NCBI GenBank assembly: GCA_021154325.1
Contig: JAJKIR010000220.1
Span: 1-64,000, forward strand
DNA length: 64,000 nt
Source: Gemmatimonas sp.
Lineage (GTDB): Bacteria > Gemmatimonadota > Gemmatimonadetes > Gemmatimonadales > Gemmatimonadaceae
Reading direction: 5' to 3'
The notes under the pieces were generated by a model. It was not told the DNA's origin, did not search any database, and saw only the letters and a program-made list of their open reading frames with translations. A program made the position numbers and the translations under genes. Positions 6,400-45,939 of the stretch are shown one piece after another. Each line of letters begins with the position of its first letter. Position 1 is the stretch's first letter.

Positions 6400-7569
6400 G
6401 TGAGTATCGCGATTGGTGACGCCGTTGCCCTGACGCGCGAGCTCGTACGCGTCGACTCGCGCAATCCCACGCTCGTCGCCGGCGCGCCGGGCGAAGGCCG
6501 CGTGGCGCGCGTGCTCGCCGACGTCCTCGAGGCATGGGGTTTCGACGTCACGGTCCGTGAAGCGGCGCCCGGACGGCCGAACGTCGTCGCGCGACTTGGG
6601 GGCCGTGCCGGCGGACGTTCATTGATGCTAAACGGCCACATCGACGTCGTCGGCGTCGAAGGGATGACGCACGCGCCGTGGGATCCCGTCGTGCGCGAGG
6701 GACGCATCTACGGTCGCGGATCCTCGGACATGAAGGCAGGCGTCTCCGCGATGTGCGCCGCGGCGGCCCGTGCCGCGGCCGCGAGCGGCGGCGCGCTCGA
6801 TGGCGAGATAATCATCACCGCTGTCGTCGACGAGGAGTACTCCAGCCTTGGCACCCGTGCGCTCATCACGGAGGGCGTGCGCGCGGACGCCGCGATCGTC
6901 ACCGAGCCCACCGGCCTCAGGATCATGCCGGCGCACAAAGGATTCGTGTGGGTCGACGTGCTCGTTCACGGGCGCGCCGCACATGGCAGCCGATGGGATG
7001 TCGGCGTCGATGCGATTCGCAACGCCGGTCTGCTGCTCGCCGCTCTCGATGCCCTGGACGCGGAGCTGCTTCCGTCACGCGAGCATGCGCTGCTCGGACG
7101 GCCGTCGCTCCACGCGTCGACCATCGAAGGGGGAATTGGTTTGTCGACCTACCCCGACAAGTGCCGCTTCACCATCGAACGTCGGACCATTCCCGGCGAG
7201 ACGACAGCCGCGGTGATGGCGGAGATCGAGGAGGCATTCACGCGCGTTCGCGCGCGTCGTCCGTCACTCGACGCCAACGTTTCGATGATCTTCGAGCAGC
7301 CGCCGAGCGACGTCTCGACAGAGTCGCCGATCGTACGTGCGCTCGACGGTGCGCTGCGAGCGTGCGGCGAGGAGGTGAACATCATGGGAATGAGCGCGTG
7401 GACCGATGCGGCGATTCTGAACGAGGCCGGCATCCCCGCGATCTGCTTCGGTCCTGGCGATATTGGATTGGCGCACGCCGCCGAAGAATACGTGCGCGTC
7501 GACGAGATCGAGCGGGCGACACTCGTCCTCGCCGCACTCGCGATGGAGTGGACTCGGAAGGGAGCCTGA
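6400..7569 (+). CDS. M20-family metallopeptidase / deacylase (ArgE/DapE-like)
   Basis: A 389-residue zinc hydrolase of peptidase family M20. The first metal ligand lies in LMLNGHIDVV, the bridging Asp in GRIYGRGSSDMKAG, the catalytic Glu pair in VVDEEYSSLG, and a final ligand region in GLAHAAEEYVRVDE. A dimerisation insert separates the halves of the catalytic domain. Family members remove acyl groups from amino acids or cleave dipeptides, and the sequence does not fix the substrate. Translation begins at a GTG three bases after the kinase stop. A 71-residue protein follows directly. Confidence 0.92.
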   Translation: MSIAIGDAVALTRELVRVDSRNPTLVAGAPGEGRVARVLADVLEAWGFDVTVREAAPGRPNVVARLGGRAGGRSLMLNGHIDVVGVEGMTHAPWDPVVREGRIYGRGSSDMKAGVSAMCAAAARAAAASGGALDGEIIITAVVDEEYSSLGTRALITEGVRADAAIVTEPTGLRIMPAHKGFVWVDVLVHGRAAHGSRWDVGVDAIRNAGLLLAALDALDAELLPSREHALLGRPSLHASTIEGGIGLSTYPDKCRFTIERRTIPGETTAAVMAEIEEAFTRVRARRPSLDANVSMIFEQPPSDVSTESPIVRALDGALRACGEEVNIMGMSAWTDAAILNEAGIPAICFGPGDIGLAHAAEEYVRVDEIERATLVLAALAMEWTRKGA

Positions 7570-7570
7570 G

Positions 7571-7786
7571 TTGGCCTATCTCTCACATAGCGACTACGAC
7601 GCGATCGAGCACGCGATCCGCATCGGTCAACGGATCATCGTCTGGCGTCGCGGCGTCGAGTACGTCGTCATTCCCGTTGAGCTGCACCTGCGCGGCGGCC
7701 GCGAGGCTATCGAGGCGCGTCGCCCGACCGGCGATTCCTTGACGCTCTTCCTCGACGAGATCGATACGATCGAGATCGTCGCATGA
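7571..7786 (+). CDS. Conserved-looking small protein of unknown function
   Basis: A 71-residue protein starting at TTG, one base after the M20 peptidase stop, with a GGGAG ribosome-binding sequence just upstream. The sequence (AYLSHSDYDAIEHAIRIGQR onward) is mixed alpha/beta and soluble, with a basic centre (IIVWRRGVEYVVIPVE) and an acidic end (FLDEIDTIEIVA). It overlaps the RNase H-like gene by four bases (ATGA), so the three genes are translationally coupled. I do not recognise a family; the tight packing is the main evidence that it is real. Confidence 0.7.
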   Translation: MAYLSHSDYDAIEHAIRIGQRIIVWRRGVEYVVIPVELHLRGGREAIEARRPTGDSLTLFLDEIDTIEIVA

Positions 7787-8433
7787 GTGACGCTGGTCAC
7801 ACCGAGCGGCCGTTGATCGCGATCTTCGCCGACGAGTCGTGCTTGGGAAACGGTCGCGAGGGGAGCAACCCTGGTGGCGCTGCCGGTGTAATCGAGTACT
7901 GGAACCCGGCGACGGAGCGTTTGACTCGTTTCGATTACTGGGTTTCGGAGCCGGCGACGACGAATAACCGGATGGCGCTGCGAAGCGTGATCGAGGCGTT
8001 CAACGCGATCTCTCGCAAGGGAACGCGGTTTCGCGTCGTGTTCACGACGGACTCGCAGTACCTCGTGAAGGGGATGACAGAGTGGGTGCACGGGTGGAGC
8101 GCGCGAGGCTGGAGGCGAAAGGGTGGCGAGATCGAGAACCTCGAGCTTTGGCATGGTGCCGTGTCCGCCGCGTCGGGGCACTCAGTCGAGTGGCGCTGGG
8201 TTCGTGGTCATGGGGGCCACCCGCAGAACGAGTTCGCGAACTTTCTCGCGATCCGGGCTGCCCGGGAGCAGACTTCCTCGAACGGTGTCGTGGCTTCGGG
8301 GTTCGACGAGTGGCTCGCGACGGAACGTGCCAAGGGACGCATGTCCGCCGAGCCGGACCCGTTCCCGCTGCAGCGCCCGTTTCGACCGGCCCGCGCCTTG
8401 CCAGTCGTGACCAAAGCTTCACTCACGTCGTGA
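7783..8433 (+). CDS. RNase HI-fold protein lacking two of four catalytic acids
   Basis: A 216-residue protein whose first 165 residues align by eye along the whole of bacterial RNase HI, the enzyme that cuts RNA in RNA:DNA hybrids. Conserved blocks are FADESCLGN, TTNNRMALR, TDSQYLVKGMTEWVHGW and VRGHGGHPQNE. The first catalytic Asp (D17) and third (D90) are present. The Glu of the usual NNRMEL is Ala (A65), and the fourth acid of the usual CDELA is Asn (N153). In Escherichia coli RNase HI the equivalent Glu is essential, so this copy is probably inactive or altered, perhaps a hybrid-binding protein. About 50 extra C-terminal residues are Pro/Arg-rich. Confidence 0.88.
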   Translation: MSDAGHTERPLIAIFADESCLGNGREGSNPGGAAGVIEYWNPATERLTRFDYWVSEPATTNNRMALRSVIEAFNAISRKGTRFRVVFTTDSQYLVKGMTEWVHGWSARGWRRKGGEIENLELWHGAVSAASGHSVEWRWVRGHGGHPQNEFANFLAIRAAREQTSSNGVVASGFDEWLATERAKGRMSAEPDPFPLQRPFRPARALPVVTKASLTS

Positions 8434-8460
8434 TAAGGGGAAACGTGAGCGAGAGTAAAT

Positions 8461-8643
8461 ATGAAGCCCCTTATCGCAGGTCTGTTACTCGGTCTCGCCG
8501 TCGGCTACTGGCAGGGATTCGGCGACGGGAGAACCGGCAAAGACAATGTGGCAGTTCGAGCGCTGAACGCATTCGGCGTCAGCAAGATCAAAGCAGCGGA
8601 AGAGTCGCGGGCGCGAAGCAGAGACGAGGCAGCGCGGCCCTGA
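8461..8643 (+). CDS. Small single-pass membrane protein
   Basis: A 60-residue protein with an N-terminal hydrophobic helix (residues about 4-20, LIAGLLLGLAVGYWQGF) followed by a charged tail with EESRARSRDEAARP. It begins at an ATG preceded by a purine-rich GAGAG sequence. Its topology suggests a membrane anchor or signal-anchored tail. No family is recognised. It lies 27 bases after the RNase H-like gene and 34 before the zinc-ribbon gene, so it probably belongs to the same transcript. Small size leaves some doubt. Confidence 0.55.
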   Translation: MKPLIAGLLLGLAVGYWQGFGDGRTGKDNVAVRALNAFGVSKIKAAEESRARSRDEAARP

Positions 8644-8677
8644 GACGTCCGCGCTAGCCCTGGAGCAACGCCCAACG

Positions 8678-9481
8678 ATGGACGCACTCGATCGCACATT
8701 CAGACATCTCCTACAGACGATCCAGGCGCGTTATCCAGCGTACCTCACTCAGCCGTTCGAGGTCGCGGAGCTCTATCAGAATATCCTGCCGTACCGCCAC
8801 CACCGGCGCGAGCTCGGGCTCGATACCAATCAGGACTACGAGCTCGTATTGCTCCAGCTCCTGTCCGGCGCGCGGGATTATCTCGTCGTGGGCGACGAGA
8901 TGCGTGAACGGTTGGCGCGCGAGCTGGCCTCGCCGAACCCCGACCCTGGGGTGTTTCGCGAGTACTCAACTTCCCAGATCGCTCTCTCGCCTTCGGCGGT
9001 CCGACGATTCCAGAGCGGCGTGGCCGACACCGAGCCGGCCCTCGCCACCGCCGGATCCGTGACGAGCGCCGAAACGACCGCACGTGCGACATCGCAGCGG
9101 GCGTCGGCCGCACCGGTGACAACGTCGCCGCGAAGCAGCTCCTCGGCCGCCACGGCGCCGAGCTTGATGGCGCAACCCGCGCCGCGGCGTCCGGCCGGTG
9201 CCGCGCCGGCCGCCTCGACAACGACTGCCTCCGCGACGCCAACGCCGACGCCCCGCGCGCCGGCCGCTCCCGCCTCCGCACGGCCAACCCAGACGATCGT
9301 TCCGCAGGCGGGCGAGCACTGTCGCTACTGCAATGGCGCGCTGCCGGGCGGCCGCCGGATCACCTACTGTCCGCACTGCGGCCAGAACCTCACTGTCGTC
9401 AACTGTCTCGCTTGCGGCACCGAGCTCGAGCTCGGGTGGAAGTTCTGCACCACGTGCGGTCGTCCTGTGACCACGCCCTGA
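8678..9481 (+). CDS. Double zinc-ribbon protein with helical N-terminus
   Basis: A 267-residue soluble protein. Residues 1-90 form a predicted helical domain (ALDRTFRHLLQTIQARYPAY onward). Residues about 110-205 are a low-complexity Ala/Thr/Ser/Pro linker. Residues about 208-265 carry four Cys-x-x-Cys knuckles (CRYC, CPHC, CLAC, CTTC), a double zinc ribbon. Such ribbons usually mediate protein or nucleic-acid contact. The N-terminal domain belongs to no family I can name. Function unknown; the tripartite architecture is clear. Confidence 0.82.
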   Translation: MDALDRTFRHLLQTIQARYPAYLTQPFEVAELYQNILPYRHHRRELGLDTNQDYELVLLQLLSGARDYLVVGDEMRERLARELASPNPDPGVFREYSTSQIALSPSAVRRFQSGVADTEPALATAGSVTSAETTARATSQRASAAPVTTSPRSSSSAATAPSLMAQPAPRRPAGAAPAASTTTASATPTPTPRAPAAPASARPTQTIVPQAGEHCRYCNGALPGGRRITYCPHCGQNLTVVNCLACGTELELGWKFCTTCGRPVTTP

Positions 9482-9524
9482 CGTCGCGCGATTCGCTCGT
9501 TAGGCACTCCACGTTGGGAAAACC

Positions 9525-10640
9525 ATGACGACGTCCACATCCTCGGTCGCGCGCCGGGCGCTGGCGGCGGCGCTCTGCACCGCCCTCGCCGCGTGCGCCA
9601 CCACGATGGGCCAGTCGGCGAGCGGCAGCCCGGCCGCACCCGGCAGCATCTCCCCGGACGACAGCTGGCCGGTCAGCACCCGCGAGCACGTCGATCTCTG
9701 GCTGCATGGGTATGCGCTGCTCACCGGCGACACCGCGCGCGTTCCATTCTTCCGGCGCGGCTATCGCCAGACCATGCGCCAGGTAAAGAGCTCGCGCGGC
9801 GCCTACACCCAGCTGGACGCGAACGCCGACCAGCTCTCCGCGCGCTTTCGCGTGAATCCGGGGCTCGTGAACGGGCAGTTCCTCCCGTTCTATTTCTCAT
9901 CCTTCCAGCAGATGCAGCAGGTCACCGATCTGTTCCTCCAGACAGGTGGTGATCCGCGCGCGACGAACGATCCGCTGACGCGACAGCTCCTCGCAGTCCT
10001 CGGCAGCACCTTCGCAAGCGGGCCCGATCGGGACTGGCTGCGACTCTTCGTCCAATCGCTCGCGGACGAGAACACCCGCTTCTACCAGGCGTACTGGACG
10101 TCGGAGCAGACGAGCCGCGCCCCCACGCGCCAGGCCGTCGACTCCATCTGGCAGCGGGTCTACCGGCCGAAACTTCAGCGTTTTCTAAACAACAGCCAGC
10201 AGAACAACGGGGAGCTCATCCTTTCCCTCCCGCTCGACGGGGAGGGACGTACGATTGCGTACTCAAAGCAGCAGAATTCCGTCGCGGTGGAATTCCCCGA
10301 CACTCCGGCTCAGGCGATTGAGGCCGTGTACGTGCTCGCCCACGAAACTGTCAACGCGATCACGACCACCGCCATCAACGACAACATCACGCCGACGCAG
10401 CAGCGCAGCGGCGTCGGCGCCGCCTACGCCGCAAACGCGAACGTGCGCGCCGGCGCCGTCCTGCTCCAGCGAGCCGCCCCGGAGCTTGCCGCCGGCTACA
10501 TGCGGTACTATCTCCGCTCCGCGGGGATCACGCCGCCCGCCGGTGATCCGTCCGCGCTCTTCACGTCGACGTTTGCCATCCCGGACGCCATTCGCGACGC
10601 CTTCACCCGGCAGCTCGAGGTCGTGCTCGGCGGAATCTGA
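9525..10640 (+). CDS. Putative exported lipoprotein of unknown function
   Basis: A 371-residue protein with a signal peptide ending in a lipobox (ALCTALAACATT, acylated Cys about residue 24), so it is expected to be anchored in a membrane on the outside. A short Gly/Ser/Pro linker leads into a helical globular domain with many Gln/Asn residues (FYFSSFQQMQQVTDLFLQTG). The segment AHETVNAI resembles the start of a zinc-protease helix but lacks the second His of HExxH, so I do not call it a protease. No family recognised. A CGTTAGGC copy lies just upstream at 9499. Confidence 0.8.
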   Translation: MTTSTSSVARRALAAALCTALAACATTMGQSASGSPAAPGSISPDDSWPVSTREHVDLWLHGYALLTGDTARVPFFRRGYRQTMRQVKSSRGAYTQLDANADQLSARFRVNPGLVNGQFLPFYFSSFQQMQQVTDLFLQTGGDPRATNDPLTRQLLAVLGSTFASGPDRDWLRLFVQSLADENTRFYQAYWTSEQTSRAPTRQAVDSIWQRVYRPKLQRFLNNSQQNNGELILSLPLDGEGRTIAYSKQQNSVAVEFPDTPAQAIEAVYVLAHETVNAITTTAINDNITPTQQRSGVGAAYAANANVRAGAVLLQRAAPELAAGYMRYYLRSAGITPPAGDPSALFTSTFAIPDAIRDAFTRQLEVVLGGI

Positions 10641-14025: not shown

Positions 14026-14120
14026 GCGGTGGTCGGTCGTCGGTGAATTCTGATTGCGACGAGCTGCGCTCGTCGCTTTTTCTTTTCACCGCTCACCGTT
14101 CACGGTCCACCGTTCACCGA
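14023..14120. repeat. Heptamer-repeat arms flanking a terminator
   Basis: Seven-base units run from the thyX stop codon: TGAGCGG, TGGTCGG, TCGTCGG, TGAATTC (14023-14050). After the terminator hairpin, five more units on the opposite strand sense follow: TCACCGC, TCACCGT, TCACGGT, CCACCGT, TCACCGA (14086-14120). The two arms are partly complementary, so they can extend the terminator hairpin. This is the same unit family as at 18349, 35299 and 45863. Confidence 0.75.
14056..14086 (+). terminator. Intrinsic terminator after thyX
   Basis: A perfect 8-bp stem (GCGACGAG with CTCGTCGC) around a 5-base loop, followed by a run TTTTTCTTTT. It lies 31 bases past the thyX stop and separates thyX from the ATP-grasp/KamA operon. 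Confidence 0.9.
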
Positions 14121-14299: not shown

Positions 14300-15502
14300 A
14301 TGACGCGCATCGGATTCGCGTACAATCAGAAGCCTGAGCAGACCGCGGCGCTCGCGATCGACGAGAGCGAGACACCGCGTCCGGAAGAGGACCCTCCCAG
14401 TACGGGCCGGGACGACGCGTCCCGGATCACACAAGCGCCGACGGCTGCTGCCGCCGCCAGCGCCGCGTCTTCGACCGATGATCTCTATGCCGAATGGGAT
14501 TCCGCGCAGACGATCGATGCGATCGCCGGCGCGCTCGCCGCATATGGCGAAGTCATTCGACTCGAGGCGTCGCCCGATTTCCCCGAGCGGCTCCGCGCCA
14601 CGCGCCCGGACATCGTCTTCAACATCGCCGAGGGACTCGAGGGCGTGAATCGCGAGTCGCACATCCCAGCCATCTGCGAATTCCTCGGCGTGCCGTACTC
14701 GGGGAGCGATCCGCTCACGCTCTCACTCTGCCTCGACAAGTCGCGCGCGAAAGAGATTCTCACCTATCATCGCGTGCCGACCGCGCCATTCCTTCTAGTC
14801 GACTCGGCAAAGGATCTCGACCATCTCCTCGCTGGCGCGCTGCCGCTCTCGCCGCCGTCCGAGATCGTGCCGCTCTTCGTGAAGCCGGTGCATGAGGGCT
14901 CGTCGAAGGGAATCACCGAGCGCAACTTCGTGAAGAACGCCGACGAGCTCGAGGCGCAGGTGCTCTTTCTCCTCGAGACGTATCAGCAGCCGGTGCTCGT
15001 GGAAGAATTCCTCCCGGGCGCGGAGTTCACCTGCGGCGTGCTCGGGAATGGAACGGATGCGCGCGTGCTTCCGATCGTCGGAATGAATTTCAGTGCGCTC
15101 CCCGGCGGCGCCGTTCCGATCTACGGCTACGAAGCGAAGTGGATCTGGGACCGTCCCGAGCAGCCGCTCGACATCTTCGCCTGCCCCGCACCGGTGAGCG
15201 ACGCGATGCGCGTCGCCATCGAGCGTGTCGTCCTCCGCGCGTATCGAGTGCTCGGCTGCCGCGATTGGGCGCGTGTCGACGTGCGCCTCGACGCCGACGG
15301 CGTGCCCAACGTCGTCGAAGTAAATCCGCTCCCCGGCATTCTTCCGGATCCGGCGGACAACTCCTGCTTGCCGAAGGCGGCGCGCGCCGCGGGCCTGTCG
15401 TACGACGAGCTCATTCAGAGCTGTCTTCTCCACGCGGCCGAGCGCAACGGCATCTCGATGCGCCGGCGCTCCGCGCGCTCGCGACGTCAGGCGGTCGCGT
15501 GA
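14300..15502 (+). CDS. ATP-grasp ligase, D-Ala-D-Ala ligase-like (first of pair)
   Basis: A 400-residue ATP-grasp enzyme. Residues after about 60 match D-alanine-D-alanine ligase folds: IVFNIAEGLEGVNRESHIPA, VPYSGSDPLTLSLCLDKSRA, LFVKPVHEGSSKGIT, VLVEEFLPGAEFTCGVLGNG, and the metal/ATP end VVEVNPLPGILPDPADNSCL. Residues about 14-60 are an Ala/Thr/Pro-rich, probably disordered insert within the N-terminal lobe. It would join a carboxylate to an amine via an acyl phosphate. The partner genes (second ATP-grasp, GNAT, lysine 2,3-aminomutase) argue against cell-wall D-Ala-D-Ala and for a specialised amino-acid conjugate. It overlaps the next gene by four bases. Confidence 0.92.
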   Translation: MTRIGFAYNQKPEQTAALAIDESETPRPEEDPPSTGRDDASRITQAPTAAAAASAASSTDDLYAEWDSAQTIDAIAGALAAYGEVIRLEASPDFPERLRATRPDIVFNIAEGLEGVNRESHIPAICEFLGVPYSGSDPLTLSLCLDKSRAKEILTYHRVPTAPFLLVDSAKDLDHLLAGALPLSPPSEIVPLFVKPVHEGSSKGITERNFVKNADELEAQVLFLLETYQQPVLVEEFLPGAEFTCGVLGNGTDARVLPIVGMNFSALPGGAVPIYGYEAKWIWDRPEQPLDIFACPAPVSDAMRVAIERVVLRAYRVLGCRDWARVDVRLDADGVPNVVEVNPLPGILPDPADNSCLPKAARAAGLSYDELIQSCLLHAAERNGISMRRRSARSRRQAVA

Positions 15503-16656
15503 AGATCGCCATTCTCTTCGACGGCGCCTCGGCGCTCGCTCGCTCACCGGACCTGCTCATTCTCGGTACGGTCGAAGCGATCGAGCGCACGCTCGTCGCC
15601 GAGGGGAATCACGTCGTCCGCATTCCGGTCTTCCTCGACGGGCGCTGGATCGAACGCATCCGCCGTGGAAAGTTCGACCTGGCCTTCAACGTTTGCGAGG
15701 GCATCGACGGCGTCGCGAACTACGAGCCTCCGGTCATCGGCGTGCTCGAGCTCTTCGGTGTGCCCTACACGGGAAGCTCGAGCTACACGACCTCGCTCTG
15801 CCTGCGCAAGCATGTCGTGAACGGGCTGCTCGAGCGGGCCGGTCTTCCGATTCCCCAGTGGGCAACGGTCCGGCGGGGTGGCGCGCTCACGTCCGTTGGT
15901 TTCCCGAGCATCTGCAAGCCCGCGGCGGAGGACGCCTCGCTCGGCGTGGAGCAGCGATCCGTCGTGCGAACGATGCGCGCCCTAACGACGCGCGTCGACG
16001 CGATGCTCGAGCGCTGGGACGAGGTCCTCGTTCAGCGGTATGTCAATGGCCGCGAGATCAACGTCGGCATCCTCGGCGACACCGTGCTCCCGATCTCGGA
16101 GATCGATTTCGGCGCGATGCCGCGAGGAAAGTGGCGCATCGTGACGTACCAATCGAAGTGGCTCGTCGGCAGCGAGGAGGACGTCGGCGCCGCGCCGCGA
16201 TGTCCCGCGGATCTGCCACCGAAGCTCGCGGCGGAAGTGCGCCGCATCGCACTCAGCGCATGGAAGCTCGTCGGTGGTCATGGCTATGGCCGTGTCGACA
16301 TGCGCATCGACTCGGCAGGAAGGCCGTGGATTCTCGAGGTGAACGCGAATCCCGATATCGCGCCTGACGCTGGTCTCGCGCGGATGGCTGGCGTCGCCGG
16401 CATCGAGTATCCCGCTCTTATTCGCGGGCTGTGCGAGCTCGGACTCGATCGCACTCGCGAGAAGATCTCGATCGAGGAGGGCTGGGCGCTGGCGCAGCGG
16501 CTCTCCGGTGTCACGGAAGACGAGTTGCATCCAACTCCGGCGCTCGATCTTTTCGGTACTGCGCTCGAGGACGGCGGCGAACGCACGGGACGCGCTCCAT
16601 ACAATCGCAGGGCGCGATCCGGCGAGCCGACCCAGCAAGCTGTCGGCGACCACTGA
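15499..16656 (+). CDS. ATP-grasp ligase, D-Ala-D-Ala ligase-like (second of pair)
   Basis: A 385-residue ATP-grasp paralogue starting at a GTG that overlaps the previous stop (GTGA). Motifs are FNVCEGIDGVANYEPPVIGV, VPYTGSSSYTTSLCLRKHVV, SICKPAAEDASLGVE, VLVQRYVNGREINVGILGD and WILEVNANPDIAPDAGLARM. It is diverged from its neighbour, so the pair is probably two sequential ligations or a heteromer rather than a recent duplication. The last 50 residues are Arg/Gly-rich and poorly ordered. Substrate unknown; context suggests lysine or beta-lysine chemistry. Confidence 0.92.
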   Translation: MKIAILFDGASALARSPDLLILGTVEAIERTLVAEGNHVVRIPVFLDGRWIERIRRGKFDLAFNVCEGIDGVANYEPPVIGVLELFGVPYTGSSSYTTSLCLRKHVVNGLLERAGLPIPQWATVRRGGALTSVGFPSICKPAAEDASLGVEQRSVVRTMRALTTRVDAMLERWDEVLVQRYVNGREINVGILGDTVLPISEIDFGAMPRGKWRIVTYQSKWLVGSEEDVGAAPRCPADLPPKLAAEVRRIALSAWKLVGGHGYGRVDMRIDSAGRPWILEVNANPDIAPDAGLARMAGVAGIEYPALIRGLCELGLDRTREKISIEEGWALAQRLSGVTEDELHPTPALDLFGTALEDGGERTGRAPYNRRARSGEPTQQAVGDH

Positions 16657-16670
16657 ATCAGGTGACCGGA

Positions 16671-17180
16671 ATGCGGCTCGGCGCGCTGCAGCGATCTCAC
16701 CGCGAACGTCTGCGGGAGATCCTCGACGCCACCGCCGTCTTCCGCCCCGCCGAAGTAGCGGTTGCGCTCGAGCTGTTCGATGACGCGCAATCCGGAGACT
16801 ACGAGTTCCTCGGCGGATTCGACAGCGAGGATCTCATCGCCTATGCCTGCTTCGGCGCGACGCCGGGAACGGATCGAACGTTCGATCTCTATTGGATCGC
16901 CGTGCATCCGAGCGCTCAGGGCAACGGCGCGGGCTCTCGTGTGCTTTCCGGAGTGGAGGAGCAGCTGCGCGCGCGCGGAGCGCGGCTGCTCGTCGTCGAA
17001 ACCTCTTCCCGCGCCGAGTACGCACCAACGCGGCGGTTCTATACGGGTCGCGGATACCGTGAGGTTGCGCGCATGCGGGATTTTTACGCGCCGTGCGACG
17101 ATCGCGTGATCTACACCAAGTCTCTTCTTCCGTCCCCCAGGTCTTCGTACCCCGACCCTAGCCCATCTCGCCATGAGTGA
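16671..17180 (+). CDS. GNAT-family N-acetyltransferase
   Basis: A 169-residue acetyltransferase. The acetyl-CoA loop is HPSAQGNGAGSRVLSGVEEQ, preceded by the strand DLYWIAVHPS and followed by LLVVETSSRAEYAPTRRFYT and the RGYREVAR strand. The ATG at 16671 follows an AGGTGA ribosome-binding sequence; a GTG nine bases earlier is possible. The stop overlaps the KamA start by eight bases. In methanogens and some bacilli a lysine 2,3-aminomutase (AblA) is paired with a beta-lysine acetyltransferase (AblB) to make the osmolyte N-epsilon-acetyl-beta-lysine. This enzyme is shorter than AblB, so the parallel is a hypothesis. Confidence 0.88.
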   Translation: MRLGALQRSHRERLREILDATAVFRPAEVAVALELFDDAQSGDYEFLGGFDSEDLIAYACFGATPGTDRTFDLYWIAVHPSAQGNGAGSRVLSGVEEQLRARGARLLVVETSSRAEYAPTRRFYTGRGYREVARMRDFYAPCDDRVIYTKSLLPSPRSSYPDPSPSRHE

Positions 17181-18345
17181 CTGGCAGAAGATCCTGCACG
17201 AGAGCATCGACTCGCTGGACAAGCTCGCGACCAAGTTCGGCACGGACGCGATCGATGTTGACGGCCTGAAGCCGGCATTCGACAATTTTCAGATGCGCAT
17301 CACGCCGGCGGCACTCGCGCAGATCAAGGAAGTCGGCGATCCGATGTGGAATCAGTACGTGCCGACCGTGCAGGAGCTCGATATCGTCGATGGCGTCATC
17401 GACTCCCTCGATGAAGACGGAGACTCACCGGTCCCGAACATCACCCACCGGTACCCCGACCGCGCGCTCTTTCTCGTGAGCCCGGTCTGCGCCTCGTACT
17501 GCCGCTTCTGCACGCGCCGCCGCAAGGTCGGTGATCCTGAGAAGATCCCGCTCAACCAGTACGACTCGGCGTTCGAGTACCTCGCCGCGCACCCCGAGAT
17601 CCGCGACGTCATCCTGTCGGGCGGCGATCCGATGATGCTCTCGGACCGTCGACTCGAGTACATCTTCCAGCGGCTGCGCGCGATCCCGCACATCGAGATC
17701 ATCCGCATCGGAAGCCGCATCACCTCTCATCTGCCGGAGCGCATCACGGACGAGTTCTGCCAGATGGTGCGGAAGTACCATCCGGTGTACATGAACACTC
17801 ATTTCAATCACCCGAGCGAGCTCACGCCTGCCGCGGTCGCGGCGCTATCGCGACTCGCGGACGCCGGCGTCCCGCTCGGCTGCCAGACCGTGCTGTTGCG
17901 CGGCGTGAACGACGATCCGCAGGTGATGAAGGAGTTGATGCAGAAGCTGCTCAAGGCGCGCGTGCGGCCGTACTACATCTACATGGCCGATCAGGTCGCG
18001 GGCGGCGAGCACTTCCGCACACAGGTCGAGAAGGGACTCGAGATCGTGAAGGCGCTGCGCGGGTGGACCTCCGGGCTCGCCGTTCCGCATTTCGTGATCG
18101 ACGCGCCCGGGGGCGGCGGCAAGGTGCCACTCCTTCCGGAGTACGTCGAGGAGATCAACGAGGACGAGGTGGTCTTCCGGAATTACGAGGGGAAGCGCTT
18201 CGTCTACAAGCAGCCGCGTCAGCCGATCACGGTTTCCGGCTGCGGTGACCCGCTCGCCCCCGCGGCGCAGAACGACGTCGTCCCCATTCAGATCGGGAAG
18301 AAGGCCGCCGCGCGGCCGCGCCGGCGTCGGAAGACCGGATCGTAG
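17173..18345 (+). CDS. Lysine 2,3-aminomutase, radical SAM (KamA/AblA family)
   Basis: A 390-residue radical S-adenosylmethionine enzyme. The cluster motif CASYCRFC (C106, C110, C113) binds the iron-sulphur cluster, GGDPMMLSD follows, and the PLP-lysine lies in DAPGGGGKVPLLPEY (K317). Two Asp residues that hold the substrate lysine side chain in the clostridial enzyme appear conserved (D273 in MADQVAGGEHF and D310 before PGGGGK), which favours lysine over glutamate as substrate. The product would be beta-lysine. It is longer than EpmB-type enzymes and ends in a basic tail. It is the last gene of the operon and ends just before a large inverted-repeat terminator. Confidence 0.93.
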   Translation: MSDWQKILHESIDSLDKLATKFGTDAIDVDGLKPAFDNFQMRITPAALAQIKEVGDPMWNQYVPTVQELDIVDGVIDSLDEDGDSPVPNITHRYPDRALFLVSPVCASYCRFCTRRRKVGDPEKIPLNQYDSAFEYLAAHPEIRDVILSGGDPMMLSDRRLEYIFQRLRAIPHIEIIRIGSRITSHLPERITDEFCQMVRKYHPVYMNTHFNHPSELTPAAVAALSRLADAGVPLGCQTVLLRGVNDDPQVMKELMQKLLKARVRPYYIYMADQVAGGEHFRTQVEKGLEIVKALRGWTSGLAVPHFVIDAPGGGGKVPLLPEYVEEINEDEVVFRNYEGKRFVYKQPRQPITVSGCGDPLAPAAQNDVVPIQIGKKAAARPRRRRKTGS

Positions 18346-18348
18346 CCA

Positions 18349-18505
18349 TGAACCGTTGTCGGTGAACCGTGAACGGTGAACCGTTGGCGGTGAACGGTGG
18401 ACGGTGAACGCTGATGGGGTGGCGAGAGCATTAGAGCTCCGCCACCCCATCAACGTTTATTCCCAATTCACCATCAACCGTCAACGGCCAACCGTCAACG
18501 GTTCA
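18349..18505. repeat. Heptamer arrays and long hairpin between convergent genes
   Basis: Nine consecutive seven-base units fill 18349-18411 (TGAACCG, TTGTCGG, TGAACCG, TGAACGG, TGAACCG, TTGGCGG, TGAACGG, TGGACGG, TGAACGC). A strong hairpin follows (18411-18452), with GATGGGGTGGCG paired to CGCCACCCCATC around a short AT-containing loop. Complementary units such as TCAACCG, TCAACGG and CCAACCG then run to the stop codon of the minus-strand gene, which is itself the TGA of a TGAACCG unit. It would act as a bidirectional terminator. Confidence 0.85.
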
Positions 18506-18925
18506 CTTGCGGATGACGATGATCACGCCCGAGCCGTGTCCGGTTCCGTAGCGCTGTGTTGCGTCCGTTCCGCTTAGATGCTGGATCTCCTTCACGTCCG
18601 TGATCGGAATCTGCGAGAGGGTGCTCGGTCCTCCCATTTTCGTCTGATCGACGTAGACGACCACGTCCTGGGGACCTTGGGTGATCGACGAAGACGCACC
18701 GCCGCGGTTCTGCAGGAAGCTCGGGCGCAGCCGCTGCACCGCCTGCAACGCGTTCTGGACATCGATCGTCGCCAGCTCTTCCTGGCTGATACGATCGGGA
18801 GAGCCCCGATGCTGCGACGCCTGCGACGCCTGCTGGCTCGCGCCCGCGCCGGAAGTCGATGAGGCACAGCCCGGCGCGGCCAGGGTGACGAGCGCGGCGA
18901 CGAGATGGAACGAGCGAATCTTCAT
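18503..18925 (-). CDS. Small plug-domain lipoprotein, copy 1
   Basis: A 140-residue exported protein with a signal peptide and lipobox (LVTLAAPGCASS, Cys about residue 20). The mature part looks like the plug domain of TonB-dependent receptors without a barrel: ISQEELATIDVQNALQAVQR, RLRPSFLQNRGG, DVVVYVDQTKMGG, IPITDVKEIQHLSGTDATQR and GTGHGSGVIIVI. I chose the ATG at 18925 at the signal peptide. It is a clear paralogue of the gene at 18985. Such proteins may bind partners at the outer membrane; the role is unknown. Its TGA stop is supplied by the adjacent heptamer array. Confidence 0.85.
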   Translation of the reverse strand: MKIRSFHLVAALVTLAAPGCASSTSGAGASQQASQASQHRGSPDRISQEELATIDVQNALQAVQRLRPSFLQNRGGASSSITQGPQDVVVYVDQTKMGGPSTLSQIPITDVKEIQHLSGTDATQRYGTGHGSGVIIVIRK

Positions 18926-18984
18926 GGTACCCTCTGCGAGCGACTGTAAGGTTGAGAAATTGATAAACTTCGTCCCGGCGCGCT

Positions 18985-19389
18985 TCAGCGCGAGACGACC
19001 TGGATCGCACCGGCGCTGTGGCCCGTGCCCCACTTCGTCGTCGCTTCCGACGAGTTGAAGTAGCGGATCTCTCGGATATCGGTCGTGGAGATCTGGCGCA
19101 GCTGATCGCTGCCCCCCAACCGATTCTCGTTGAGATACACCACGAGGTCCACCATCTCCATCGCGTTCGTCGCGCCCGGCGTGCCGTGGACGGCGCCGCG
19201 AGTGCGCAGGAAGTTCGGGCGGAGCCGCTGGATCACCTCGTACGCATTCGACGCAGAGCTCTCCACGATCTCTTCCGTCGAGATCAGGTTCGGGTTCTGC
19301 GTTGCGGCCGAAGGACCCCCACCGCCGGAAGCACAGGCAGTGAAGGCGACCAGCGTCGTGGCGAGAACTCGACGTGAGAATTGGTGCAT
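18985..19389 (-). CDS. Small plug-domain lipoprotein, copy 2
   Basis: A 134-residue paralogue of the neighbouring gene, with a lipobox-type signal peptide (TLVAFTACASGGGG). Shared blocks are ISTEEIVESSASNAYEVIQR, RLRPNFLRTRGA, DLVVYLNENRLGG, STTDIREIRYFNSSEATTKW and GTGHSAGAIQV, the same order as the plug of TonB-dependent receptors. The ATG at 19389 has a good GGAGG ribosome-binding site five bases upstream. It is the upstream member of a probable two-gene unit; spacing to copy 1 is about 60 bases. Confidence 0.85.
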   Translation of the reverse strand: MHQFSRRVLATTLVAFTACASGGGGPSAATQNPNLISTEEIVESSASNAYEVIQRLRPNFLRTRGAVHGTPGATNAMEMVDLVVYLNENRLGGSDQLRQISTTDIREIRYFNSSEATTKWGTGHSAGAIQVVSR

Positions 19390-19510
19390 GTCGCCTCCGT
19401 GTCTGAGCGATCTGGCATTCGCGACCAGACAATTCTGGGCCGCGTGCCCATGCACGGCAAGTGGAGGGACGAGCCGGCGCCGCGCTGTCGCACGGCGCCG
19501 CTCCGATCGC

Positions 19511-35301: not shown

Positions 35302-35407
35302 TTGGTGGTTGGTGATTGGTGAACGTTGAACGGTGAACGGTGAACGGTGAACGGTGAACGGTGAACGGTGAACCGATCACCGTCCGGGGACCACGGACTG
35401 CCGATCA
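35299..35407. repeat. Heptamer array bridging two convergent stop codons
   Basis: From the stop of the deacetylase gene: TGATTGG, TGGTTGG, TGATTGG, TGAACGT, six copies of TGAACGG (35327-35368), then TGAACCG, ATCACCG, TCCGGGG, ACCACGG, ACTGCCG. From the other side, the TGA stop of the minus-strand gene at 35405 opens TGATCGG, CAGTCCG, TGGTCCC, CGGACGG, TGATCGG. The whole intergenic space is array, with no other sequence. Confidence 0.9.
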
Positions 35408-45858: not shown

Positions 45859-45939
45859 TCGGTGAACGGTGATCCGTGATCCGTGATCCGTGAGCGGTAG
45901 TTGTCCACGGTCCACGGTCCACCGTTTACCCGTTCACGG
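45856..45939. repeat. Heptamer array bridging tamB and dipeptidase stops
   Basis: After the tamB TAG: TGAACGG, three copies of TGATCCG (45870-45890), TGAGCGG, TAGTTGT, two copies of CCACGGT, CCACCGT, TTACCCG, TTCACGG. The TAA stop of the minus-strand gene lies in the TTACCCG unit. Left and right halves are partly complementary. Confidence 0.85.

What the first reader, a model, noticed from the sequence alone, without database searches (positions are those of the whole stretch)
14300..18345. Operon of two ATP-grasp ligases, a GNAT enzyme and lysine 2,3-aminomutase
Four genes overlap or nearly touch (GTGA overlap, 14-base gap, 8-base overlap). KamA keeps the cluster cysteines, the PLP lysine and both Asp residues that bind lysine in the clostridial enzyme. 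The AblA/AblB pair makes N-epsilon-acetyl-beta-lysine, an osmolyte; here two diverged D-Ala-D-Ala-ligase-like enzymes are added. Inference: beta-lysine is made, acetylated or ligated by the ATP-grasp pair into a dipeptide or conjugate, possibly a new osmolyte or metabolite.
Basis: partly seen in the sequence, partly recalled or inferred. Interest (0 to 1): 0.72.

Follow-up and report, generated by a model that had tools for sequence, protein, structure and literature searches.

The report
Four-enzyme beta-lysine peptide cassette
Four neighbouring genes that are kept together across distant bacterial groups, and kept as a full set even in genomes where they lie far apart, look like a small undescribed pathway that turns lysine into beta-lysine and builds it into a small acetylated peptide inside the cell.

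Summary
Four overlapping or nearly touching genes at 14300-18345 encode two D-Ala-D-Ala-ligase-like ATP-grasp enzymes (P1, P2), a GNAT (P3) and a KamA (P4), with terminator-like stems on both sides. The order is not chance: of 121 loci read (Gemmatimonadota, Candidatus Kryptonia, and the phylum of a Chlorobiaceae MAG), 87 have P1-P2-P3-P4 intact and 13 are cut by contig ends. In ten genomes of another clade P1 stands alone, yet all ten keep P2, P3 and KamA at unlinked places, so the link is functional and not mere synteny. P3 is not AblB; KamA misses the AblA cut-off and lacks the zinc cysteines. GNAT was lost from the locus three times and KamA at least twice, so the ligase pair is the fixed core. 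P1 keeps the Ddl substrate residues that could be mapped except Tyr216 (Trp); P2's pocket is rebuilt, with two new invariant aspartates. EF-P modification is excluded in this genome. Best reading: an intracellular, N-acetylated beta-lysine peptide, perhaps a compatible solute. The product is not shown. No paper in the library searched describes the cassette.

The parts
14056..14076 (+). terminator-like 9-bp stem-loop with T-run between thyX and the cassette
   Evidence: consensus match only; seen in the sequence
14300..15502 (+). P1: Ddl-like ATP-grasp ligase 1, 400 aa, with a low-confidence, length-variable linker (residues 15-62) inserted after the first strand
   Evidence: (under the Ddl cut-offs)
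15499..16656 (+). P2: Ddl-like ATP-grasp ligase 2, 385 aa, GTG start, rebuilt substrate pocket (EDAS, KW, N-x-NPD motifs)
16662..17180 (+). P3: GNAT N-acetyltransferase (start GTG 16662 or ATG 16671); closest solved relative 2r7h
17173..18345 (+). P4: KamA-type radical SAM/PLP lysine 2,3-aminomutase, 390 aa, without the zinc-site cysteines
18407..18457 (+). 18-nt inverted repeat (94% complementary) followed by T-rich sequence, likely terminator after kamA

Best explanation
The four genes are one biosynthetic cassette for an intracellular, N-acetylated, beta-lysine-containing small peptide. Step 1 (inferred from residues): KamA turns L-lysine into beta-lysine with [4Fe-4S]/SAM and PLP. Step 2 (inferred): P1, a Ddl-like ligase with a nearly standard amino-acid pocket, activates an amino-acid carboxylate as acyl phosphate and joins it to an amine. 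Step 3 (inferred): P2, its diverged sister with a rebuilt pocket holding two new invariant aspartates, makes the second peptide bond or attaches beta-lysine itself; the aspartates would hold cationic amines. Step 4 (inferred, optional): the GNAT acetylates a free amine and neutralises it. No exporter or regulator travels with the cassette, so the product probably stays in the cell, where a compatible-solute or protectant role is plausible. Shown: gene content, order, co-retention, and intact catalytic residues. Not shown: substrates, product and function. Likelihoods: single functional unit 0.95; KamA acts on lysine 0.8; ligases join beta-lysine into a peptide or conjugate 0.5; compatible solute 0.3.
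For: Order P1-P2-P3-P4 in 87 of 121 loci, with 13 more cut by contig ends, in different flanking contexts: thyX or thyA/folA in Gemmatimonadota, recG in the L118 group, other genes in Kryptonia. In 60 relatives P1 and KamA co-occur 28 both / 2 / 1 / 29 neither, Fisher p = 1e-13; two of the three exceptions lie at contig ends. Ten genomes with P1 alone all keep P2, P3 and KamA, on other contigs or at least 30 kb away. Gene trees agree, pairwise r 0.81-0.92. KamA keeps the lysine-binding Asp pair and the PLP lysine in 23/23. ATP/Mg residues K144, E187, K215, R255, D257, N272 are invariant in P1 (33/33) and P2 (30/30), and E270 nearly so. Both models have the Ddl fold. A separate housekeeping Ddl over the cut-off exists in 55 of 60 genomes, including this one.
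Against: KamA is missing from the whole genome in L108, L112 and L116 while P1-P2-P3 stay intact, so the ligases can work without beta-lysine or use another source. GNAT is absent from the cassette in ten loci, so acetylation is not universal (a copy elsewhere was not searched for). Substrates cannot be read from sequence. Kryptonia and soil Gemmatimonadota are not halophiles, which weakens a pure salt role (inference).
Confidence: 0.5

Rival explanations
1. [quoted passage not shown]
For: KamA residues fit lysine 2,3-aminomutase; GNAT and KamA overlap in the window; N-epsilon-acetyl-beta-lysine from AblA plus AblB is established in methanogens and cited for green sulfur bacteria and Bacillus (PMC12776343; PMC9337991).
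Against: The GNAT does not match the AblB model and AblB over the cut-off occurs in 0 of 60 relatives against 3 of 14 controls. Across loci the ligase pair is never lost and GNAT is lost three times, the opposite of what an AblAB core predicts. GNAT without KamA occurs (L108, L112, L116).
Confidence: 0.15
2. The ligase pair makes a lysine-based or other peptide and KamA/GNAT are tailoring options: the core product is a di- or tripeptide without obligatory beta-lysine.
For: P1+P2 is the invariant core; KamA lost at least twice and GNAT three times independently; P1 keeps the Ddl amino-acid pocket.
Against: KamA is kept in nearly all cassettes and in all ten dispersed genomes, so the beta-lysine step is usually needed; the KamA-less loci could be decaying.
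Confidence: 0.2
3. KamA is EpmB and the unit modifies elongation factor P by beta-lysylation.
For: EpmB belongs to the same KamA superfamily (TIGR03821 hit, 229 bits).
Against: TIGR03821 cut-off 369 not met. EpmA over the cut-off in 0 of 60 genomes (the other hits are at the level of LysRS). The EF-P of this genome reads HHTPGNLRAM, with Asn where the modified Lys34 sits.
Confidence: 0.01
4. P1 and P2 are cell-wall ligases (D-Ala-X type) and KamA supplies beta-lysine for a peptidoglycan or envelope modification.
For: Both are Ddl relatives by sequence and fold.
Against: A separate true Ddl exists. No Mur, VanH/VanX-like or transport gene recurs next to the cassette. P2 has lost Ser150, Gly276 and mostly Ser281 of the D-Ala site.
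Confidence: 0.08
5. KamA serves lysine catabolism by the beta-lysine fermentation route.
For: KamA is the first enzyme of that route (general knowledge).
Against: No kamDE, kdd, kce or kal gene was recognised in the window around the cassette and none recurs in the conserved flanks of relatives; two ATP-consuming ligases make no sense in a catabolic unit. The rest of the genome was not searched for that route.
Confidence: 0.03

Closest known systems
AblA/AblB pathway for N-epsilon-acetyl-beta-lysine (methanogens, some bacteria)
   Same: A KamA-family lysine 2,3-aminomutase next to a GNAT in one operon; likely acetylated, intracellular product.
   Different: The GNAT is not AblB; KamA is below the AblA cut-off; two ATP-grasp ligases form the invariant core; no AblB elsewhere in the relatives.
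D-alanine--D-alanine ligases (DdlA/DdlB, VanA-type)
   Same: Fold (Z about 33-34 over 290 residues for P2 against DdlB), ATP/Mg residues, Dala_Dala_lig_C domain.
   Different: Both below every Ddl cut-off; Tyr216 is Trp in both; P2 has Asp for Gly149 and Gly276 and Ala for Ser150; the genome has its own Ddl.
Clostridial lysine 2,3-aminomutase (2a5h)
   Same: Cluster cysteines, PLP lysine, Arg134 equivalent, both substrate Asp residues.
   Different: Shorter C-terminus; the residue at the zinc-ligand position in 'VND-C' is Asp or another residue, and the C-terminal cysteine cluster is absent (identity of the zinc ligands from general knowledge).
GNAT 2r7h (Desulfovibrio, 'putative D-alanine N-acetyltransferase')
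   Same: Best solved relative of P3, E = 1e-30 over 136 residues.
   Different: A structural-genomics entry without known function; its gene neighbourhood could not be read here. Related GNATs on plasmids stand alone.
KamA + Ddl-like ATP-grasp pair on plasmid pTHIMO01 of Thioflavicoccus mobilis
   Same: An independent linkage of a KamA with a Ddl-like ATP-grasp (33% identity to P1).
   Different: One ligase only, divergent orientation, next to SbnA/SbnB-like and diaminobutyrate transaminase genes; no GNAT.

Membership tests
AblA/AblB pathway | AblA: match to TIGR03820 above its cut-off | tested here: not met
   437.6 bits against 525.4
AblA/AblB pathway | AblB: match to TIGR03827 above its cut-off, here or elsewhere in the genome | tested here: not met
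   No hit for P3; 0 of 60 genomes over the cut-off, including this one
[quoted passage not shown]
   Needs metabolomics or enzyme assay
Lysine 2,3-aminomutase (mechanistic class) | CxxxCxxC cluster motif, PLP lysine, two Asp that bind the lysine side chain | tested here: met
   C106, C110, C113, K317, D273, D310 aligned to 2a5h and invariant in 23 sequences
Lysine 2,3-aminomutase (clostridial type) | Zinc-site cysteines | tested here: not met
   VNDD in place of VNDC, and the C-terminal region diverges with no conserved cysteines
D-alanine--D-alanine ligase | Match to TIGR01205 above its cut-off | tested here: not met
   P1 140.2 and P2 120.9 bits against 245.65; the true Ddl of this genome scores 325.1
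D-alanine--D-alanine ligase | Ddl fold and ATP/Mg residues | tested here: met
   Foldseek and VIA-align matches and residue table
D-alanine--D-alanine ligase | D-Ala site residues Ser150, Tyr216, Gly276, Ser281 | tested here: not met
   P1 keeps Ser150, Gly276 and Ser281 but has Trp for Tyr216; P2 lacks Ser150, Tyr216 and Gly276 and mostly Ser281
EpmB/EpmA/EF-P beta-lysylation | Lys34 in EF-P and EpmA in the genome | tested here: not met
   Asn at the Lys34 position; EpmA over the cut-off in 0 of 60 genomes

The most novel reading that the evidence does not exclude
The cassette defines an undescribed pathway to a new class of intracellular metabolite, an N-acetylated beta-lysyl di- or tripeptide, made by a heterologous pair of Ddl-derived ligases and used as a protectant or signalling compound in Gemmatimonadota, Kryptonia and Chlorobi-side bacteria.
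Probability: 0.4. Interest if true: 0.8.

Novelty: new variant of a known kind. Interest (0 to 1): 0.6.

Why it matters
A self-contained four-enzyme unit kept for long evolutionary times in poorly cultured soil, hot-spring and Chlorobi-side bacteria, and co-retained when its genes are scattered, points to a metabolite important to these cells that is not described in the papers searched. It would show how Ddl-type ligases were recruited twice in one pathway to make a beta-peptide bond, give annotators a way to stop calling these genes D-Ala-D-Ala ligase, and hand chemists ready enzymes for beta-lysine peptides. It turns the question 'what do widespread KamA genes outside AblAB, EpmB and lysine fermentation do?' into a direct experiment.

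Tried and rejected
EF-P modification: rejected. AblAB osmolyte operon as such: AblB not met. Simple Ddl duplication for the cell wall: a separate Ddl exists and the pockets differ. Chance order or lineage synteny: rejected because flanks differ between groups and dispersed genomes keep the full set. Lysine riboswitch or other Rfam element in the window: none at the gathering threshold. Looking for recurrent extra partners (transporter, regulator, peptidase) downstream: none recurs. Plasmid collection for wider spread: no full cassette; only single relatives and the Thioflavicoccus pair. Literature: aminomutase with ATP-grasp gave two unrelated papers, KamA with ATP-grasp none, the phrase with D-alanine ligase none, with Gemmatimonadetes one unrelated; subscription papers are not held. 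The Desulfovibrio neighbourhood of 2r7h could not be reached. Fold searches gave only Ddl-type rows in the tables shown, so no hint at another substrate class.
Full report
OBSERVATION. The four genes are present at the stated coordinates with the stated junctions. P1 (14300-15502) and P2 (15499-16656) carry the D-Ala-D-Ala ligase C-terminal domain, P3 (16662 or 16671-17180) is a GNAT, and P4 (17173-18345) is a KamA-type radical SAM protein. A terminator-like stem at 14056-14076 separates them from thyX, and an 18-nt inverted repeat at 18407-18457 follows kamA. No Rfam element lies in the window.

CONSERVATION. In 60 genomes (the window's own and 59 relatives) high-scoring P1 occurs in 30 and cassette-type KamA in 29; 28 have both and 29 have neither (Fisher p = 1e-13). 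Two of the three exceptions lie at contig ends. A scan of 84,980 species genomes with a P1 alignment gave 513 relatives, of which the best 80 were read. They include Gemmatimonadota, Candidatus Kryptonia (L117, L119, L122, L126) and a Chlorobiaceae MAG (L118). In the phylum of L118's genome, 67 of 395 sampled genomes have P1, and 40 of those loci were read. In total, 121 loci including the window: 87 with P1-P2-P3-P4 in order on one strand, 8 with P1-P2-P4, 3 with P1-P2-P3, 10 with P1 alone, 13 cut by contig ends but consistent. Flanking genes differ between groups, and no further gene recurs on the downstream side.

CO-RETENTION WITHOUT LINKAGE. The ten genomes with P1 alone (between a BON-domain-like gene and an rsmB-like gene; names from reading the sequence) all have cassette-type KamA (next to a ybeY-like gene), P2 and P3 elsewhere, on other contigs or at least 30 kb away. 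Nine of these genomes form one clade in all four gene trees, and pairwise distance correlations among the four genes are 0.81-0.92 (part of this reflects shared species history). Gene order alone could be inherited; keeping all four when dispersed is strong evidence that they act together.

LOSS PATTERN. On a P1+P2 tree of the Gemmatimonadota-side loci the GNAT is missing from the cassette in three separate places (L093/099/100/101/106, L092, L063/065/069/074) with no reading frame for it between P2 and P4. KamA is missing from the whole genome in L108 and in the L112/L116 clade, with P3 still open there. The pair P1+P2 is therefore the fixed core. These are MAGs, so absence from a genome is less certain than absence from a fully read locus.

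ENZYMES. KamA: C106, C110, C113, R115, D273, D310 and K317 are invariant in 23 sequences and align with the functional residues of 2a5h (functional roles from general knowledge of that structure). The zinc-site cysteines are gone. KamA scores 437.6 against the AblA cut-off of 525.4, 392.6 against the glutamate-mutase cut-off of 650 and 229.4 against the EpmB cut-off of 369.3. P1 and P2 are closer to each other (143 bits) than to the Ddl of this genome (108 and 113 bits), so they are sister paralogues. AlphaFold2 models (mean pLDDT 85 and 86) have the Ddl fold (P2 against P. aeruginosa DdlB Z 34.2, rmsd 2.2, 290 residues). Mapped on E. coli DdlB, the ATP/Mg residues are intact in both. P1 keeps Gly149, Ser150, Gly276 and Ser281 but has Trp for Tyr216. 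P2 has Asp for Gly149, Ala for Ser150, Trp for Tyr216, Asp for Gly276 and Gly for Leu282, each in 30 of 30 sequences. P1 also has a variable, low-confidence linker at residues 15-62, inserted after the first strand. P3 is closest to 2r7h, not to AblB.

WHAT IT IS NOT. EF-P beta-lysylation is excluded for this genome: Asn at the Lys34 position and no EpmA. It is not the cell's Ddl, which lies elsewhere. It is not an AblAB operon by the curated models.

BEST EXPLANATION. A cassette for an intracellular N-acetylated beta-lysine peptide. The gene set, order, co-retention and intact catalytic residues are shown; substrates, product and function are inferred. The extra aspartates of P2 would suit a cationic substrate such as beta-lysine; this is a hypothesis. 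The absence of an exporter or regulator favours a retained metabolite. A compatible-solute role has precedent in N-epsilon-acetyl-beta-lysine (PMC12776343; PMC9337991; PMC3543383) but is untested. The KamA-less cassettes are the main evidence against an obligatory beta-lysine.

INDEPENDENT PARALLEL. Plasmid pTHIMO01 pairs a KamA with a single Ddl-like ATP-grasp beside SbnA/SbnB-like genes, which supports the idea that Ddl-like ligases and KamA work on linked chemistry.

NOVELTY. No paper in the open-access library describes the combination; subscription papers were not searchable. All enzyme families are known; the assembled pathway appears undescribed, so it is graded a new variant of a known kind.

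Noticed in passing
window 14085-14119, 18349-18501, 35317-35375, 45860-45876: An intergenic 7-bp-period repeat (CCGTTCA / TGAACGG type) flanks the cassette on both sides and recurs at 35.3 kb and 45.9 kb: 15 matches in the window against 0.03 expected.
   Followed up: partly
window 18503-18934 and 18985-19455, minus strand: Two tandem small secreted or lipoprotein-like genes, 36% identical, with a TonB-plug-like pattern; the family recurs near the cassette in related genomes.
   Followed up: partly
L143 (plasmid pTHIMO01) 2557-8038: Diaminobutyrate transaminase, SbnA-like, SbnB-like, Ddl-like ATP-grasp, with a divergent KamA: looks like another small peptide pathway built on diaminopropionate and beta-lysine.
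   Followed up: partly
window 17173-18345 and relatives: Cassette KamA enzymes lack the zinc-site cysteines of the clostridial lysine 2,3-aminomutase, yet keep all catalytic residues.
   Followed up: partly
L144 (pNGR234a) 6773-9855 and other rhizobial plasmids: Distant P1-like ATP-grasp (34-36% identity) next to a CapA-family gene in Sinorhizobium fredii NGR234; relatives in other rhizobial plasmids.
   Followed up: no
window 14300-15502, P1 residues 15-62: A variable-length, probably disordered linker is inserted after the first strand, at the loop that in Ddl holds the first-substrate glutamate.
   Followed up: partly
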